Assembly (NCBI RefSeq): GCF_964355755.1
Contig: NC_092671.1
Location: 39,387,304-39,451,303, forward strand
DNA: 64,000 bases
Source of the DNA: Antedon mediterranea
Lineage: Eukaryota > Echinodermata > Crinoidea > Comatulida > Antedonidae
Direction of reading: 5' to 3'
A program made the position numbers and the translations under genes. This document shows positions 2,666-54,489 of the stretch, piece after piece. Under the pieces are notes generated by a model. That model saw only the letters and a list, made by a program, of their open reading frames with translations. It did no database searches and was not told the origin of the DNA. Numbering within the stretch: the first letter of the stretch is position 1; every line of letters begins with the position of its first letter.

Positions 2666-2984
2666 GCATAAAACCAATTTCTTTTTTTTTCAAGTAAAAT
2701 ATAAATTGTAAATAATTATAACAATACATAATTTTGTTAAAAATATTAGTATGTTATTAAATCAACTTACAGATAATTATTTTCTTTTCCTGCAAGCATT
2801 ATAGTTGGTTCTAGAGCACTGGTACTCAATCACACTGAAGTCCATAGCACTGTAAAAAGAAAAAATATAATAACATACAGTACTAGGCATTGTTTTCCTG
2901 TGTAATATTCTATTGAAAAACTATACAAAAGGTTTTTATATTAACATTTACACTATGTAACTTAATACTAGGTAGGTATATATT

Positions 2985-3195
2985 GACATAAAAGAACACG
3001 GCTCATCACCGTGGAAACGGACTGATCGCTGGGTAATGCCCAGAATTCCACTCGCAGACAGTTTGAATTGCAATACTTGAGCACTCTCTGACGATCGTTC
3101 TTAAACGGGCTAACACCAGGGGTCCTGGAATGCCCTTCGGTAATGAATCCAATCAAAACAACTCGACAACTAATTAAGAGTGTATGCTGCATTTG
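2985..3195. other. Hairpin-rich segment of unknown nature
   Basis: This 210-base stretch is GC-richer than its surroundings and contains several compact hairpins: CCGT-GGAA-ACGG (a GNRA-type loop on the plus strand), CTGGG-TAATG-CCCAG, CCAGG-GGTC-CTGG, and a CTTCGG turn. The minus strand also has a 74-codon frame without recognisable domains. I could not match it to U1-U12, RNase P/MRP, SRP, 7SK or U3 from memory. Confidence 0.25.
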
Positions 3196-4453: not shown

Positions 4454-7400
4454 ATGTCTAAATCTGTAAAGAAACAAGTTGATGAAGCACAGAATCATAA
4501 AAGCCCCGAGTTGGACCTGTCAGATAAAAGTATCAGCAAAATATTGGACATTCCATCTCTTTGTAAGTTACTATTTTTATTGATATTGCTAACTTGACTA
4601 TCTTATTCTTATGTTTGCTTGCCTGAAATGTGCCTGAAAATAGGCCTAGAATACTGTTTAGGCCTAGATAATCATTGATAATGATATAGTTCCACCAGGG
4701 AGTTACAAATTCCATGGACCACCCATTTACATAATAATAAATATTCACTTCTTGTCTATACTGTAAATTAAATATCAAAGTTAATTACTTTATTTTGTTT
4801 GTTTTTTCTTTCAGTTTCATTGGCAGACCATTTGACAAAACTAACTTTGAGTCACAACAAGATAGAAAGTAAGTTGGCAACAAAACAGACAAACATCCAA
4901 CAAGAAAGGTTAAAATCACAACACTTACTAAGGAATAATAGGCTAATCTACCAATGAATAAACAATCTATATCGCAAATAGCGTGCACAACGCATGGTGG
5001 GAACGATTTGGGAGCAAACGTCACATTGTTGTCGTGACAATTGCTCTCAAACCCTTCCCATCTTGTGAAATCAAGCTATTTGCGATAAACCATACTCTAC
5101 TACTATAACAAAATTTCCACAAACAAATAAAAATCATGAAAAAAAAGTTTAATTATTAATTATTTTGATCATATTAATAACTTATAATTAAATTTAATTA
5201 GGCAACTCATATAAATACAGTTTGTCCTTCCTGTCGTCCTTGTCGTGTTTGTATCGTCGTACATGTCCGTCCCTGTCTGTCAGTAGCGTACCTTCACTTT
5301 GCTTATTATTATTATTTTTAACTTTTTAATTCTTTCTGGTGGATCCAGGCTTAAAGCCCCTTGGGGTTTAAATGGTATTCTCCAGGCATAATGCAACTAT
5401 TTTTTACTTAATTTCCAACCACTTGTATCTTTTATATTTTGTATATGTTTGCATTATGTGAATAAATTTGAACTTGAACTTGAAGTGTGAAAATCAGCCA
5501 ATGAGAATTACTGTAAATGATGAAAACATACTGTAATTGTATTTTAGAATCCATAACATTTGTTATTCATACTGTAGTTAACATTTTCAACTTTTTTTTT
5601 AACAAGGCGTTCCTGCAGCAATCGTAGAACTTCACAAATTGGAAGTCTTAAACTTATTCAACAATCACATCGAAGAGTTACCAAGCAACTTCAGCTCGAT
5701 GCAAAATTTGAAAAGACTCAATCTAGGGTAAAGTTAAAGCCAATGCCCCAAAAAATAATTCTTCAAATTTATCTACTTCCTTCCAGGGCCGTAGCCAGCA
5801 TATCGTCTGAATTTCAATTTTCACCACCCACCCCAATTCCCCAGCAGAGATCGTCATATTTTATATTGATAATTAAGCATCTTGCCTCATCTGCTTTTAA
5901 CTCTCGCTACGGCCTTGCCTTCCTTCCATTGACTAATTCCAATGTACTACTACACATTTAACATAAAACATTTCCTTACATAATGGACTACTGCATTATT
6001 AATTTTTTTATTTTCAATGTTTTTTTCAGGATGAATCGATTGTATCAGCTCCCTCGTGGGTTTGGTGCTTTTCCAAAGCTAGAAGTTCTTGATTTAACGT
6101 ACAATAACCTGAGTGAAAACAGTTTAAGTAAAAACTTTTTTCTTTTAGGTGAGTGACTCAAATTCATTCTTTAAACATTGCATTTTTTGTTTTGAATAAG
6201 TATATTTGGGATTTGAATAGTTTGAGGAGCTAAAACCAGACCAATCAAATAAACCATATCTGTAATACGCCAGGGAAGAGCTCTTCTGTGGCGTTTTAAT
6301 ATTATTGTGTATGTTTGTGATTTGTGATTATATGTGCCAGAATTGCTTGATGATGAGTGCTTTATAAACTTGATAAAATGTCATGTGTTATTCAAAATTG
6401 GTTACCTTTTTACAGGTACGTTACGCTCTTTATACATCAGTGATAATGATTTTGAGGTTATTCCAGAAGGGATTGGCAAGCTGACAAATTTAAAACAGGT
6501 AAAAATTCTTGAAATAATATAATGTAATTATTTTTACAAATTAATTTTTATATGTATATGCAATTAACTCGCCAATTACAGGACAGATAAACTATTTAAT
6601 AATTTATCATGCTTATAAACTAAATCTCATTTGAGACTTAGGGAGTGGAGTTGAAAGAGTTGTACAACCCTGGCACTAGGTCAGGATTGAACCCCGGACC
6701 TTGGCATTGGAAGCCAACACTACTATTTTCATCAATCTGTAATTAGTTTGTTATTTATTTTATTATTTTAGATTAATTACTAATATATATATATATATAT
6801 ATACTGATTATTGTATTAAATAGTTTGCAATCCGAGACAATGATCTTATATCCCTCCCGGAAGAAATTGGTGAACTATCATATTTACGAGAACTTCACAT
6901 TCAAGGAAACAGACTAACAGTTTTACCGCCAGAGCTTGGTAAGAATGTTATTTGTTTATTTGAGAATTTATATTTATTAACATGAATATTTCTTATATGA
7001 CCCTCTCCTCCACATGATTACTTCATTGTATTTATTATCCTGTATGTTATTGTGTATTGTGGAAATAAATTAAATTGAAATACACACAAGAAATAAAGTC
7101 ACCAGAAATAGTGCCTAGAGTCCTCATTCACATAATGCTATCCCTCATATAGTACAACCATATTATGGGAACATCCCTAAAGCTCTGTCTACACTATCAA
7201 ACTGTGATGTGTCCATATATGGACATGATGATGTCATATCACTACCATATTTGGCCATATCACTACCATATTTGGCCATATCACTACCATATTTGGCCAT
7301 ATCTCTACCATATTTGGGCACATCAAACCAGTTTGATAGTGTAGATAGAGCATTACAAAGTGTCCTTTTGTCCTCTTGTTCTACGTATTCTTATTTCGTA

Positions 7401-23172: not shown

Positions 23173-36542
<13,370 letters not shown>

Positions 36543-42267: not shown

Positions 42268-45092
42268 TCAGGAACCCAGAGTCATTTGTGACGTCATCGT
42301 CATTCCTTCTGGTGGATACATATCCTTTGCGATCCGTATAAAATTGTCTGCGGCATCCAGGTCTAGTAAACGATCCTGTAGTTGAATAAACAATACTTGT
42401 TACATCTGTATGTTTGCATGTTATAATTATTATTTTATTCACACATTAACACTTGGAATTTATTCATAAATTCGGTTATGGTAGTATAGTGTAAAACCCT
42501 GTCTACACTACCAAATATGGTAGCGATATGCCCAAATATGGTAGCGATATGCCCAAATATGGTAGCGATATGCCCAAATATGGTAGCGATATGTCCAAAT
42601 ATGGTAGCGATATGCCCAAATATGGTAGCGATATGTCCAAATATGGTAGCGATATGCCCAAATATGATAGTGATATGACATCAAGTCCATACATGGGCGC
42701 ATCACATTTTTTTGTCACATAAAGTTTGATAGTGTAGACAGAGCTTAAAGATGTATTGTCCCTTGAAACACAAAAAAATGAAAAACAAAATATTCTAAAT
42801 TTAAATTGGCCATATCAAAGTAATAAAGTTATTCACTTTAAGTCGAAAATTCGAGCCAAAAACAAGAAGTTTACGTAATTAACAGGTAAATTAATTTGAT
42901 TACATTTCGTCTGGAAAATTGTCACTAGCGAAAGTAAACAAAGATTTCAAACCATTAGTATGCATTCATTATGCATGATGCTAATTAGGATTGTTTACAA
43001 CTCATCGCGGTTGAGAAGGTGTTTTCACACAGATCGCGAAGAAGTTTTATGATTATGCATACAGAGTAGTCAAACAAGCGCGTTGCATTATGAGATATGC
43101 TTTGATCAAAAACTTTGACTGGAAGTTATTTTTCGAACAAAAAAACGTCTGTATTTCGGTTAAATAATTTTTTTTTCGACAAATTTTTGGTGAAAGTTAA
43201 TAACTATTATGATACTTCAAAATGACCAACTTTGTTTCGAAATATTAAAAAAATTGTTGTTGTTGAATTAGTCAAAGGGACAATACATCTTTAAGGCGAG
43301 AATTAAATATTACAACCATAGGTCTTACGGTAATTTATTTGGTGAAACTTACTAATATGATCGTGTACCGTTGTGGTTGCGTGACGTCTTCTAAGAAGAT
43401 TGACGTCTGCGTGGCCAACTTGTCGTGTAGTTGTCGCGCCTTTTGTGCAGAGCCTAACGTCTTTGACGCAGACGATGAGGTGACCACGAGAAGTGATTTA
43501 GCATCTTCAATGAAACCTTCAAAATGAATAATAACAATGATTTAGTTTAGTTTTAATTGCTTAATTTTTATACCTTATATGGGTTAGTTATTCCAGATGA
43601 TTTAAGGGGAATGGCAGACAAACGTAGCCTACCTAAGCGATCTAGGACTTTCTTCCATCGCTCTTGAACAGCTAGTCTCCGAGATCGTATTCTGCTTATC
43701 TCAATATCAACATCCATCCATTCCTACTAACACAATAATACAAATAAAATAATATATATCAATTTTAAGGTTTATCGCAAATAGCTTGATTTCACGAGGA
43801 ACGTCATTGCATGGCACAATGCATGATGGGAGGGGGTTGGCAGCAAACGTCACGACGCGTACGTACAAACAACACATCACGTACGTACACGTCGTGACCT
43901 GCTCCCAAACCCTTTCCATCATGCTTCGCGCACGCTATTTACTTCCTAATCTCTAAATAATCTCTCTTAATCTCTCTCACTATAAAGTAAAAAGAAGTTG
44001 CTCATGGTATTCGAACCCCATACATCGACATGTCTAAGTCCATAGTCTAATCGACGGAAAGCGTTTGCATTTAGCAATTTGTAGTTACCTCAATTCTTAC
44101 GCCACACCTTATGGTTATGACTATGAATATTTATGTATTTTGTGACGTTTCATGAGTCCCCAACTTATGTACCAAAAGAAATATCGCGGGCCGGCCCACT
44201 ATTCTATAGTATATCAATCTGCTATTGATTTAGATAGGAGTTAAAATATAACACAAAAAAATAGATAAATTATTGGAACTTGCTTGTGACCCGGGTTCTT
44301 CATCCTTTCTCCTTTGAATTAAATTATATAATTGTCGGTCGTCGTCTGCTTCCATGTGTGTGACGTCATTTGGCTCACTCCATAGATTCTCGTCATCGTT
44401 AGATGTATGAGTGATGGTTTCATCGTAATAACGAGTTGCAACAGGCCTAAATGGAAAGAGAAACTTATTTAAAGCTTAATGATTCCCACTTGGACGCAAC
44501 GCAAGTAAAGGCCAACTTAGACATCGTCGTACGACGAGGCCTGACGAAACGTCTTGACTCGTCGGTACTGTCTGAGTTGAATCCCGACGAGACGTCTTGA
44601 AATAGCGTCAGGCGTAGTTTTTAAGTCGTCGGGAGAACATTAAACATGTTTAACTTTCTCCTGATGACTCGTCGGGCCCCGTCGCACGACGCTGTCTGAG
44701 TTGGCCATTATTTGACCAATCACGACGTGATGGATCACCAGAACTGTTGCTTGTGATTGGCAACTCACTTCTTGCGTTTCGCCTACGACGTTGCGTAACA
44801 TCAAAAAGTGAGAAACAAAAGTTTTTACGCAGAAATGTATGGGCGTATCAGCGACGCAGATATCATAATGGGCGAACGTTTGAGCGACACCATAATGGCG
44901 ACTTTAAACGCCGCTCTGCTTCAGAATTATAAACATATGCAACATGCTTAGTCAGACCATACACATCAATTTCAAATAAAATGTTTGTAGGAGGCTTACT
45001 CACGAAATTAGGGCACGTCTTTCCTCTTTACTGCCTTCATATGGTGGCGTCACGGACCGCTGATAGTCACTGGGACAACAACAGAAATCCAT
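42268..45092 (-). CDS. MREG: Melanoregulin paralogue A, complete, five exons
   Basis: Melanoregulin is a small peripheral membrane protein that affects melanosome and lysosome transport and maturation. Exons on the minus strand: 45092-45004, 44446-44284, 43723-43633, 43516-43353, 42375-42268; phases 2, 0, 1, 0; 615 nt, 204 residues (human 214). The N-terminus MDFCCCPSD has a Cys cluster at 4-6 in the place of the palmitoylated cluster of the family. Residues 48-67 (DENLWSEPNDVTHMEADDDR) match the vertebrate core EKNLWSMPHDVSHTEADDDR. Later GFIEDAKSLLVVTS and DRLLDLDAADNFIRIAKDMY match GFQKEADSLLSVT and DRLIALDAAEEFFKLARRTY. Intron 2 uses a GC donor (ACAA|GCAAGT), supported by the homologous junction in paralogue B. 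A family 4 MITE fills intron 4 and a family 3 MITE lies in intron 2. Confidence 0.94.
42493..42746. mobile_element. MITE family 1 copy with an expanded 21-bp CArG array, in melanoregulin A intron 4
   Basis: Left end AACCCTGTCTACACTACC, right end TTTGATAGTGTAGACAGAGC. The interior is eight units of AAATATGGTAGCGATATGCC(C). Seven units contain CCAAATATGG, starting at 42511 and then every 21 bases to 42637; the eighth (42658) reads CCAAATATGA. The left arm has been overwritten by the array. Its right end touches a family 4 MITE at 42745. Confidence 0.9.
42745..43294. mobile_element. MITE family 4 copy, long form, in melanoregulin A intron 4
   Basis: Left terminus TTAAAGATGTATTGTCCCTT, right terminus GGGACAATACATCTTTAA. 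At 550 bases it is about 200 longer than other copies; the extra is around 42900-43130 (GCATTCATTATGCATGATGC and CATCGCGGTTGAG), not found in the others. Confidence 0.8.
43767..43941. mobile_element. MITE family 3 copy in melanoregulin A intron 2
   Basis: Ends AAGGTTTATCGCAAATAGCT and the decayed CGCGCACGCTATTTAC; arms GCAGCAAACGTCACGACGCG / ACGTCGTGACCTGCTCCCAA around a palindromic ACGTACGT centre. Starts 43 bases upstream of exon 3's acceptor on the minus strand. Confidence 0.85.
44472..44800. mobile_element. MITE family 2 copy interrupted by a nested family 5 MITE
   Basis: The outer parts are 44472-44509 (ATTCCCACTTGGACGCAACG) and 44707-44800 (ATTTGACCAATCACGACGTG to CTTGCGTTTCGCC). They are separated by the nested element listed next. 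Located in melanoregulin A intron 1. Confidence 0.8.
44510..44707. mobile_element. MITE family 5, inserted in a family 2 MITE
   Basis: Ends GGCCAACTTAGACATCGTCG and GACGCTGTCTGAGTTGGCC form terminal inverted repeats; the inner sequence has repeated CGACGAG, CGTCGGG and GACGTCTTGA words in both orientations. This is the only copy in the window. Confidence 0.8.
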
Positions 45093-49368: not shown

Positions 49369-52300
49369 TCACTTCTTCGGTAAATGCCTTCTTGGAAAAC
49401 TTCTTTTTGCCATTTTTACAAAGTCTTTGCCAATATCAAGATCTACCAAACGATTCTGTAAAAAGTAACATTCAATTAGAAGTTTTGTCTCATAGCTAAT
49501 GAACTATATTTTAAAGATATGCACTGTGTATGCGCAAATTTAGAAATATAAGCCTATATTATTCTTGGTTTGAAAGTCAATCGTTGCTTTTGTGTATCAC
49601 AAATCACAATCGAAAAAGTTTGATAACACAAAATGGACACATTAAAAGAAGGCAAACGTCTCTATAACCGGACAAACATCCAATGTAAACCAAACTTAAG
49701 CTCTGTCTACACTAACTAATGTGTGACAAAAAAAATGCGATGTGCCCATATATGGACATGATGATGTCATGTCACTACCATATTTAAGCATATCACTACC
49801 ATATTTGGGCACATCACACCTTTTTTTTTTATCAAACTTGTTTGATAGTGTAGACAGAGCTTTATTGTTTTACTACTCAGTACTATTAGCCAAGTTCGCA
49901 ATCAGTGCTTTTACTTACCATTACTATTAGGTATCGATCCGGTTGGCTATTTCCTTCAGTAAATATTGCAGTTTCGTCTTCGAGTTCATGGAACAGTATA
50001 TATGTCTCATGCGATATACCCTCACGCATGGCTGATGTAGCCAGGCCGGTTACTGATACCAAATCTTCAACACTTTTTGAGAAGCCTATAAGTTTAGAAG
50101 AAAATTAACATTAATGTTAAATAGATTGCATTAAAATTGGTATATGCCACTACGGTTATCATTAAACAAAATAAACGATCGCATCGTAACGAAATTTTGC
50201 ATCTCAAAACTTTTGACCTAATATTAGTAACAATGTTTTGGCACATATGCCGTTTCATACGTATATTACTTAGAGACAAAAATCGAAACGTCGACTGTTT
50301 GTTGGACTGACATTAAAAAAGACAATAAATTTTACCACCTCTCCTCCAAAATAGCTGATTAAAACACATATTGTCGAGTAAAAAGACAATATAAAGTCCC
50401 GACTCAAAGAGTAGGGAATTGAGTATGCCAACGATAGTCTATTTGTAAACGGTAATAATGTGTTGTTAACGTTAACTATGCTTGTATTTATTGCCTAAAA
50501 TTATTATAGTGAAATAAATCCGTGTTTATTTATATGTACGATCCCTTAACACGCCTTGTACCTGTATTATTCATTACATTGAATGATATATGCACAATGT
50601 CGCTAAAATGATAATTCAAATGGATTACGTCATTGTTTGTAATGTGAATGTCAATTCTGCAACGTTTGATGAAATAACTGTACGCATATAATTACTATAC
50701 CAAGGTATTCATAACGTTAGTAACGTTAGTAACGTTCATAAGGTATTCATAACGTTAGTAACGTTAGTAACGTTCATAAGGTATTCATAACGTTAGTAGT
50801 TCCACAACAAAGTCACTCTTAATTTCTATGTTTGTTCTTTATACATGTTCTATTGTAATAAGGATAAAGTTCACAGTAAAGTACCCTCCTATTGTATGGA
50901 ATAGCCAAGTTCAAGTTACGCAAAATGCCTGATGAATTAAGGAATATTCACATAACATAATCACTTGACTAATATAATAGGACTTATTTTACATATTGTT
51001 ACTCGTGAATAATTGTTCATAACAATGTGAGATATACTAGTTAAAGCACCATATGTACATTAATCCAATGATTTTTATTTTTGCATATTTTTATTTTTGC
51101 ATATTTTTACTTGATTTGATTTGGAAAATCATCATAAAATATATATAAAGGATGACATAATTTAATAGAGTTGGAGTTGGAGTGGAGTTGTGGCCTGGTG
51201 GTTATGATGCTTGGCTGCCAATCCAAGGGTCCTGGGTTCAAGTCCTGTCATATGTCAGGATTTTTTCTAATGACAATTTACAACTCCACTCCCAAAGACT
51301 TGTAATAAAGACTTTGTTTATGTAGAGCATTGTGTGTATATGTTTGTCTCGTGAACGGATTGCCACCTTTAAGAAGGATAGTGATTGAATTTGCTTATGG
51401 TTATCCTTGGCAATTTGCCTAAATATATAAAATAAAAATAAAAATAATGACATTACGAATAAATACATTTATAAAAGATTTTCCAGGATAGCCCAAACAG
51501 CTTATTAGCTTATTTCTATTAGGATCTTTTTTAATCTAAATAAAATGAGTATTGCATTATAAACACTTACATATAACAACAACATATATTTATAAACAAT
51601 AAAAAGACTATGATTGTAGTTATTTAGTAGATAGGACAGTAGAACTCATCCCTATCCCAAATTACCTACATAACAATGACGTCACCGTCTCTGCACATAC
51701 CTAATAACTGCAGCACTGCTTTCCATCGTTTTTGTGTTTCTTTTCTGATGGCACGAATTGAATTTATTTTTGCTTCTACGTCACTATATTGCTAAAAAGA
51801 TAATTGTAATTCAGTATTAATATTATATATTATCAAGCATGCTTTCCAACCAGCAACATTAAAATACATTAACTGAGGCTTATAGGCCCTATCATAATAT
51901 AATATAGTTAAGTTCGTACCCAACATAGCAATATTATTAATAGGCTTAAGCTCTGTGTACACTATCAAACTTGTGATGATGTTTACCCATGGACACGATA
52001 ATGTCATATCACTACGGTATCATATTTGGGCATATCACTACCATATTCGGGCACATCACACGTTTTTGTCAAACTAGTTTGGTAGTGTAGACAGAGCTTT
52101 AGTATAATATATTAAATTGTAAGATAAGCATAACACAGTAGTATGTCAAGCCCCGGATGTAGGCGGGAAATACAATAGACCTACTACAGTCGTGCTGCTG
52201 TGATAGTATGAATATTTAGAAATACGTCAGAATACCGAGCATGATTTTAAACCAAAGCCGAAGAAATTATTACTTTGAAAGTGGCATTTTAAAAGCAATA

Positions 52301-53226: not shown

Positions 53227-53657
53227 CTTCGTTGTTTTTAACTTTAAAATATAACCATCGGTTTACATGCAAATAATAGCATCATTGTCGCTAACATTAG
53301 GTTTTCGTACCAGCAAGTCTAAAATCCAAAATACTACGTCACGCTGCAGTATATCATATTTTAAATACCAACTTTGTTTTGATGGTAGTAGGTTGAATCA
53401 CGATAACAATACAGTGTATTGTTTGTGTTAATTGTATTAAGGGCTGTACATAATTATTATTAACAATGCACATGTCTGAGCTGTCTAAAATGATGTGTTC
53501 ATATACAAAATTGAAAAGGAACACTTAATTAGTTATAAGCACACTTAATTAGTACTGGTCATTAGTTTAATACGTATATTACAAATGGCACTATACTTCA
53601 TATTTGTGCATGTTGAAACCTTAAACAAACTCGTACACATGAAACATCAAAGTAGAC

Positions 53658-53817
53658 AAAGCTCTGTCTACACTATCAAACTAGTTTGACAAAAAAGTGT
53701 GATGTGCCCAAATATGGTAGTGACATGCCCAAATATGGTAGTGACATCATCATGTCCATAATATGGACACATCACATCTTTATGTAACATAAAGTTTGAT
53801 AGTGTAGACAGAGCTTA
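53658..53817. mobile_element. MITE family 1 copy
   Basis: Ends AAGCTCTGTCTACACTATCA and TTTGATAGTGTAGACAGAGC with two CCAAATATGG boxes 21 bases apart. It lies 432 bases upstream of the melanoregulin B start codon. Confidence 0.9.
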
Positions 53818-54489
53818 AGAAATGGCCATGGAGGGAAAATGGTATGACAGCCAATACACAAGCTATAGCTACAGATTTCAACTCTCTTTATCTGTTATGG
53901 AATTCCTCCCGTCATATTGTTGTTACCATGTTTTATTCCTTTCATTTTAACTATTTTCTTGTTACAATAGAGTGTCGGTAGATTCTGAATGTTTGGGTAA
54001 ATATGTCTCATGGTGGAAATTAAGGTATACATTGATTTCCCTTTGTACTAAAATTGCGTAATCTTCTAATTTAAAAGAACAATAATAATGACGAATATCG
54101 GTGCCTTTGAAACACTCATGCTAATGTGACGGATACTTAATTTTGGGGGCGTGGTTCCGGCTAAAAATTAAGACACAGAATGGGTTAATTAAGCTTCCTG
54201 TGTTTGGAGGCAAAGCACGCGGTACAAGCAGTGATTTCAAACTTAATTTTTGATTTTTTTTAACTAAGCGAGAAGTCACCGGGTTGTTGACCTAACAATT
54301 TAAACTTGTTAAAAAAGTTTTAACACAAAACATTCATTTGTTCTAATTTAAGGTTATATCCCAAGCATTTTAATTGTTTTTTTGACCAAAATATGAACCC
54401 AATCCCGATGGAATCGTATTAGTCCCTTGTAAGCATTGATGATATGTTTCCATTCGTCAGCAGTGACACTGAAGTTCAAATGTTCCGTA

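What the first reader, a model, noticed from the sequence alone, without database searches (positions are those of the whole stretch)
42493..42746. A MITE carries a seven-box CArG (SRF-type) array with exact 21-bp spacing
Seven CCAAATATGG sequences start at 42511, 42532, 42553, 42574, 42595, 42616 and 42637. Each is a perfect CC(A/T)6GG consensus, and 21 bp is about two helical turns, so all boxes face the same side of the DNA. The array is inside melanoregulin A intron 4. That SRF or another MADS factor binds there is inference; the sequence and spacing are seen directly.
Basis: partly seen in the sequence, partly recalled or inferred. Interest (0 to 1): 0.66.

Follow-up and report, generated by a model that had tools for sequence, protein, structure and literature searches.

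The report
MITE with an amplified 21-bp repeat
The seven identical "CArG boxes" are one 21-bp unit copied inside a small, very abundant mobile DNA element, and the boxes decay across copies no slower than the rest of the element, so this is an ordinary transposon-borne minisatellite rather than a demonstrated gene switch.

Summary
Seven perfect CCAAATATGG boxes start at 42511-42637, spaced exactly 21 bp, with an eighth unit broken (CCAAATATGA). They lie inside a MITE (42495-42745, TAA at both edges) in the last coding intron of a melanoregulin gene on the minus strand.

The boxes are not seven independent events. They are an in-element expansion of a unit that most copies of this foldback MITE family carry once or twice. 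The genome (354 Mb) holds thousands of copies (18,552 near-matches to a 31-bp unit probe; reversed control 0) and many arrays as long or longer: 31 with at least 5 exact consensus units, one of about 39 units.

Boxes diverge 6.9%, linkers 7.0%, the rest of the element 5.5%. 55% of boxes are still perfect; neutral decay predicts 61%. Arrays amplify CArG-broken units too (8 of 30 have a broken modal box).

SRF binding at individual copies is not excluded. One such array lies about 3.4 kb upstream of the SRF gene itself, but most of its boxes are broken and chance explains it at the per-cent level. Verdict: new member of a known kind, the tandem-repeat-containing MITE.

The parts
42492..42494 (.). 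left TAA (target-site duplication, TWA type)
   Evidence: TGTAA|AACCCTG...; matching TAA on the right side
42495..42510 (+). left terminal inverted repeat, truncated: joined straight to the array, about 34 bp of the usual left arm (TCAAACTAGTTTGACAAAAAAAGTGTGATGTGC) missing
   Evidence: this exact junction occurs at only 4 places in the genome
42511..42677 (+). tandem array, 8 units of 21 bp (CCAAATATGGTAGCGATATGY); units 1-7 carry a perfect CArG box, unit 8 is CCAAATATGA
42678..42745 (+). right half of the element: palindromic spacer, decayed third box (CCATACATGG) and right terminal inverted repeat ending TAGTGTAGACAGAGCT
42746..42748 (.). right TAA
42376..43352 (-). intron of the melanoregulin gene that contains the element (last coding intron)
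   Evidence: Pfam MREG on neighbouring exons; last exon reads DRLLDLDAADNFIRIAKDMYPPEGMTMTSQMTLGS* on the minus strand; splice sites read
53654..53825 (+). standard two-unit copy of the same MITE (used to define the family)
7169..7362 (-). four-unit copy of the same MITE, five perfect CArG boxes

Best explanation
This is one expanded copy of a very abundant, non-autonomous, foldback MITE (about 160 bp, about 60-bp terminal inverted repeats, 3-bp TWA-type target duplication). The family's standard form carries one or two copies of a 21-bp unit, CCAAATATGGTAGTGATATGC. In some copies slippage, unequal exchange or gene conversion multiplied the unit (here to eight, elsewhere to about 39), giving a minisatellite riding inside a MITE. 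The CC(A/T)6GG motif is a property of the founder element: it sits at the inner tip of each arm of the inverted repeat (CCAAATATGG / CCATATATGG). It is copied with the unit and then decays neutrally. Shown: anatomy, copy number, variable unit number, no excess conservation. Inferred: the duplication mechanism, mobilisation by a PIF/Harbinger-type transposase, and absence of a host function.
For: Many copies in the window (21 matched stretches, 18 copies inspected) with 0-8 units, mostly 1-2. Thousands in the genome: 3,100 and 2,761 first-look candidates; 18,552 unit matches at up to 3 mismatches, reversed control 0; 1,779 exact double CArG boxes, control 0. Graded array lengths, including 31 distinct arrays with at least 5 exact units (my count from the listing) and one of 39 units, 36 perfect boxes (L029). 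The near-complete foldback places boxes in both arms (79% identity of the consensus to its own reverse complement). TWA at both ends in most copies. Neutral decay of boxes: 6.9% versus 7.0% in linkers and 5.5% in the rest of the element. Perfect boxes 63 of 115 (55%) against 61% expected from background rates. W-to-W changes, which keep the box, are not enriched (4 of 22 in boxes, 46 of 152 elsewhere). Arrays homogenised for broken boxes: TCAAATATGG x18 in L006, CCAAACATGG, CCAACTATGG, TTAAATATGG, CCAAATATTG. Literature: tandem repeats growing inside MITEs are described in Xenopus and the clam Donax (review PMC12628747).
Against: A/T sites inside boxes are somewhat less variable than A/T sites elsewhere (3.1% versus 4.4%; permutation P = 0.06). 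No autonomous partner was found. The two TWA copies agree in the middle base in only 31 of 50 pairs (P = 0.07), so the superfamily is not settled. Family-wide neutrality does not exclude function at single insertions.
Confidence: 0.88

Rival explanations
1. SRF-binding array: the MITE has spread SRF-responsive cis-elements, and the seven-box, helically phased copy is an enhancer or silencer of melanoregulin.
For: CCAAATATGG fits CC(A/T)6GG; 21 bp is two helical turns; the genome encodes one SRF and one MEF2. Transposons have distributed CArG-like sites for a plant MADS factor (PHERES1 and Helitrons, PMC6914339). One expanded array lies about 3.4 kb upstream of the SRF coding start.
Against: No excess conservation of boxes, broken boxes amplified too. 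The array near SRF has mostly broken boxes (modal CCAAATATGA). Canonical actin genes have none of the listed arrays within several kb. Melanoregulin is not a known SRF target (own knowledge).
Confidence: 0.06
2. The unit is a binding site for the element's own transposase or accessory protein (internal subterminal repeats), kept because it helps transposition; CArG resemblance is incidental.
For: The box is part of both long inverted-repeat arms, and its AAATAT core is among the better conserved stretches of the element. Transposases of several families bind repeated subterminal motifs (own knowledge).
Against: Copies with a single unit or a decayed unit are also numerous; no autonomous element with these ends was found.
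Confidence: 0.05
3. Chance or assembly artefact.
For: Tandem arrays can be misassembled in length.
Against: Many independent arrays of all lengths across the large contigs with unit-specific variants; reversed-pattern controls give 0.
Confidence: 0.01

Closest known systems
Tandem-repeat-containing MITEs of the clam Donax trunculus (Satovic and Plohl 2013, cited in PMC12628747) and tandem repeats riding on the Xstir MITE of Xenopus (Hikosaka and Kawahara 2004, same review)
   Same: MITE with an internal short tandem repeat of variable copy number that can grow toward a satellite
   Different: Other sequences and organisms; here the unit happens to contain CC(A/T)6GG. The primary papers were not available to read.
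miDNA4, Tc1/mariner MITE driving a satellite in Xenopus (Scalvenzi and Pollet, via PMC12628747)
   Same: MITE with a monomer or array of variable number, leading to satellite DNA
   Different: Different superfamily ends; the target duplication here looks TWA rather than TA
Minisatellite-containing MITE of Porphyromonas gingivalis (PMC4596501)
   Same: Minisatellite inside a MITE (title and abstract)
   Different: Bacterial, unrelated sequence
RC/Helitrons carrying PHERES1 CArG-like sites in Arabidopsis (PMC6914339)
   Same: A transposon family that disperses CArG-like motifs
   Different: There, binding and expression effects were measured; here neither was, and the motif shows no retention

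Membership tests
MITE (non-autonomous, short, TIR-bearing DNA transposon family) | terminal inverted repeats, no coding capacity, under about 600 bp | tested here: met
   about 60-bp arms, 160 bp standard length, no gene
MITE (non-autonomous, short, TIR-bearing DNA transposon family) | high copy number of uniform length with target-site duplication | tested here: met
   (thousands); TWA at both flanks in 50 of about 70 copies
Tandem-repeat-containing MITE | internal direct repeat whose copy number varies among copies of one family | tested here: met
   0 to 39 units
PIF/Harbinger MITE | 3-bp TWA target duplication | tested here: inconclusive
   TWA both sides in 50 copies, but the middle base agrees in only 31 of 50 (P = 0.07). 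A MITE inserted at another's edge (L058) fits TAA.
PIF/Harbinger MITE | autonomous partner with the same ends encoding a DDE_Tnp_4 transposase | tested here: inconclusive
   150 DDE_Tnp_4 matches in the genome; none of the 8 read has this TIR within 1.5 kb; most were not read
SRF-responsive CArG regulatory element | CC(A/T)6GG sequence | tested here: met
SRF-responsive CArG regulatory element | motif retained beyond neutral decay | tested here: not met
SRF-responsive CArG regulatory element | bound by SRF, open chromatin, effect on a gene | not testable with these tools
   needs ChIP/CUT&RUN, ATAC and reporter assays

The most novel reading that the evidence does not exclude
The MITE family has seeded this genome with hundreds of phased, multi-box SRF sites that titrate or redirect SRF, including an array about 3.4 kb upstream of the SRF gene that makes SRF respond to its own transposon-borne sites.
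Probability: 0.05. Interest if true: 0.65.

Novelty: new member of a known kind. Interest (0 to 1): 0.22.

Why it matters
It shows how a perfect, helically phased transcription-factor 'array' can arise by plain tandem duplication inside a transposon, and why motif perfection and spacing alone say little about function. The family itself is a good natural series (1 to about 39 boxes on one backbone) for asking at what box number a dispersed motif array begins to be bound.

Tried and rejected
Identifying the organism by COX1 failed (no match). An autonomous partner was sought among 8 DDE_Tnp_4 loci and not found. An empty-site search by joined flanks inside the fetched DNA gave only MITE-in-MITE cases. 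A literature search with the TIR string found nothing. The Donax paper PMC3879986 is not held. SRF-target enrichment was checked roughly through actins: no listed array within several kb of the canonical actin genes; one array lies within an actin-related gene locus, about what chance gives.

Full report
Observation. The sequence is as described: seven CCAAATATGG boxes at 42511-42637 with period 21, an eighth unit ending GA instead of GG, and short inverted repeats at the ends. The element spans 42495-42745 with TAA on each side. Its host gene is melanoregulin on the minus strand: MREG-domain exons around 44.2-44.5, 43.6-43.7 and 43.3-43.5 kb (the middle one scores below the curated cut-off), and a last exon just below 42.38 kb that reads DRLLDLDAADNFIRIAKDMYPPEGMTMTSQMTLGS*. 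The MITE lies in the intron before that last exon, roughly 118 bp from its acceptor.

Is it more than chance? Thirty CC(A/T)6GG in the window against about 5 expected is a real excess, but 26 of the 30 fall in copies of one MITE family. In twelve random 5-kb stretches, with one MITE copy among them, there were 5 CArG boxes, none in a MITE. So the excess is the MITE, not a separate property of the locus.

What the element is. Thirty best relatives of the neighbouring copy at 53.65 kb give a clean consensus of about 160 bp: AAGCTCTGTCTACACTATCAAACTAGTTTGACAAAAAAAGTGTGATGTGC-[CCAAATATGGTAGTGATATGC]x2-...ACATCATCATGTCCATATATGGGCACATCAC...GTTTGATAGTGTAGACAGAGCTT. It is a foldback: the consensus aligns to its own reverse complement over its full length at 79%. 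One CArG box lies at the inner tip of each arm (CCAAATATGG left, CCATATATGG right). The genome (354 Mb, 11 large contigs, species not identified) holds thousands of copies: 2,761-3,100 first-look candidates and 18,552 near-matches to a 31-bp unit probe, with 0 for the reversed control.

Array length. Genome-wide it is not: 1,779 exact box-linker-box matches; 360 registers with five consecutive near-consensus units, of which 70 are exact and fall in 31 separate arrays by my count of the listing; and arrays of 17, 23 and 39 units (L003, L006, L029). The copy in the window also has an unusual left end in which the TIR joins the array directly; that junction occurs at only four places in the genome. 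Its units carry TAGCG where the family has TAGTG, in seven of eight units, so the expansion followed that mutation. Spacing of 21 bp is the repeat period. Copies with 25-26-bp units exist (L012, L022), so phasing is not strictly kept.

Test of the CArG interpretation. Across 41 near-standard copies, substitution from consensus is 6.9% in the boxes, 7.0% in the linkers and 5.5% in the rest of the element. Split by base, box G/C sites are less conserved than other G/C sites (12.6% versus 7.5%), and box A/T sites slightly more conserved (3.1% versus 4.4%, P = 0.06). Box-keeping changes (A to T or T to A) are not favoured (4 of 22 in boxes, 46 of 152 elsewhere). Perfect boxes are 63 of 115 (55%) against 61% expected from the background rates. 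In 30 expanded arrays, chosen by similarity to an all-CArG query and therefore biased toward intact boxes, 8 have a broken modal box, and one of these has 23 units. I see no sign that amplification or survival depends on the motif. The sample was chosen by similarity to window copies, so very old copies are under-represented.

Classification. TWA flanks point to PIF/Harbinger, but the middle base agrees in only 31 of 50 TWA pairs (P = 0.07), and no autonomous element with these ends was found among eight DDE_Tnp_4 loci. I file it as a tandem-repeat-containing MITE and leave the superfamily open. Such elements are known: the review PMC12628747 describes tandem repeats expanding within MITEs in Xenopus (Xstir, miDNA4) and cites the Donax work; a bacterial case is PMC4596501.

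What is not excluded. The genome has one SRF gene (L082, with ...GRVKIKMEFIDNKLRRYTTFSKRKTGIMKK / AYELSTLTGTQVMLLVASETGHVYTF...) and one MEF2 gene (L081). Unexpectedly, one of my 30 array loci (L012, C10:16,105,4xx-16,105,7xx) lies about 3.4 kb upstream of the SRF coding start, and the 6 kb from the array through the first SRF exons contain no other perfect CArG. With perhaps 160 to a few hundred arrays in gene-rich DNA, one within 4 kb of SRF has a chance of the order of 1-3% (my estimate; seen after the fact), and most of its boxes are CCAAATATGA. I note it as a lead, not as evidence. A precedent for transposons spreading MADS sites exists in plants (PMC6914339).

Conclusion. A correct and well-read observation, but an ordinary object: a minisatellite grown inside an abundant MITE whose unit happens to match CC(A/T)6GG.

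Noticed in passing
L012 (G000:C10:16,105,422-16,105,727) and L082: An expanded CArG-array copy of the same MITE lies about 3.4 kb upstream of the SRF coding start; 4 perfect boxes, most others CCAAATATGA; no other perfect CArG in the 6 kb down to and past the first SRF exons.
   Followed up: partly
G000:C2:9,103,002-9,103,179: A long array of at least eight exact consensus units lies within an actin-related gene (actin-family matches at 9,101,141-9,101,576 and 9,103,379-9,103,582).
   Followed up: no
L029, G000:C8:3,280,890-3,281,956: Array of about 39 units, 36 with perfect CArG boxes: the MITE repeat grown to a small satellite.
   Followed up: partly
window 42745-43295: A second, different short element with ends TTAAAGATGTATTGTCCCTTGA / TCAAAGGGACAATACATCTTTAA directly abuts the MITE; the MITE's right TAA coincides with this element's edge.
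   Followed up: no
window 49886-50104 (-): A second melanoregulin-like exon (MREG E=1e-7), suggesting tandem melanoregulin paralogues.
   Followed up: no
window versus L061-L072: The MITE is about 20 times denser in this window (21 matched stretches in 64 kb) than in 60 kb of random genome (1), suggesting strong clustering in gene-rich or distal regions.
   Followed up: partly
window 31526-32150: A large G+C-rich minisatellite with 20/42/62-bp higher-order period (GTAGGCGTTAGGCCTATGGG).
   Followed up: no
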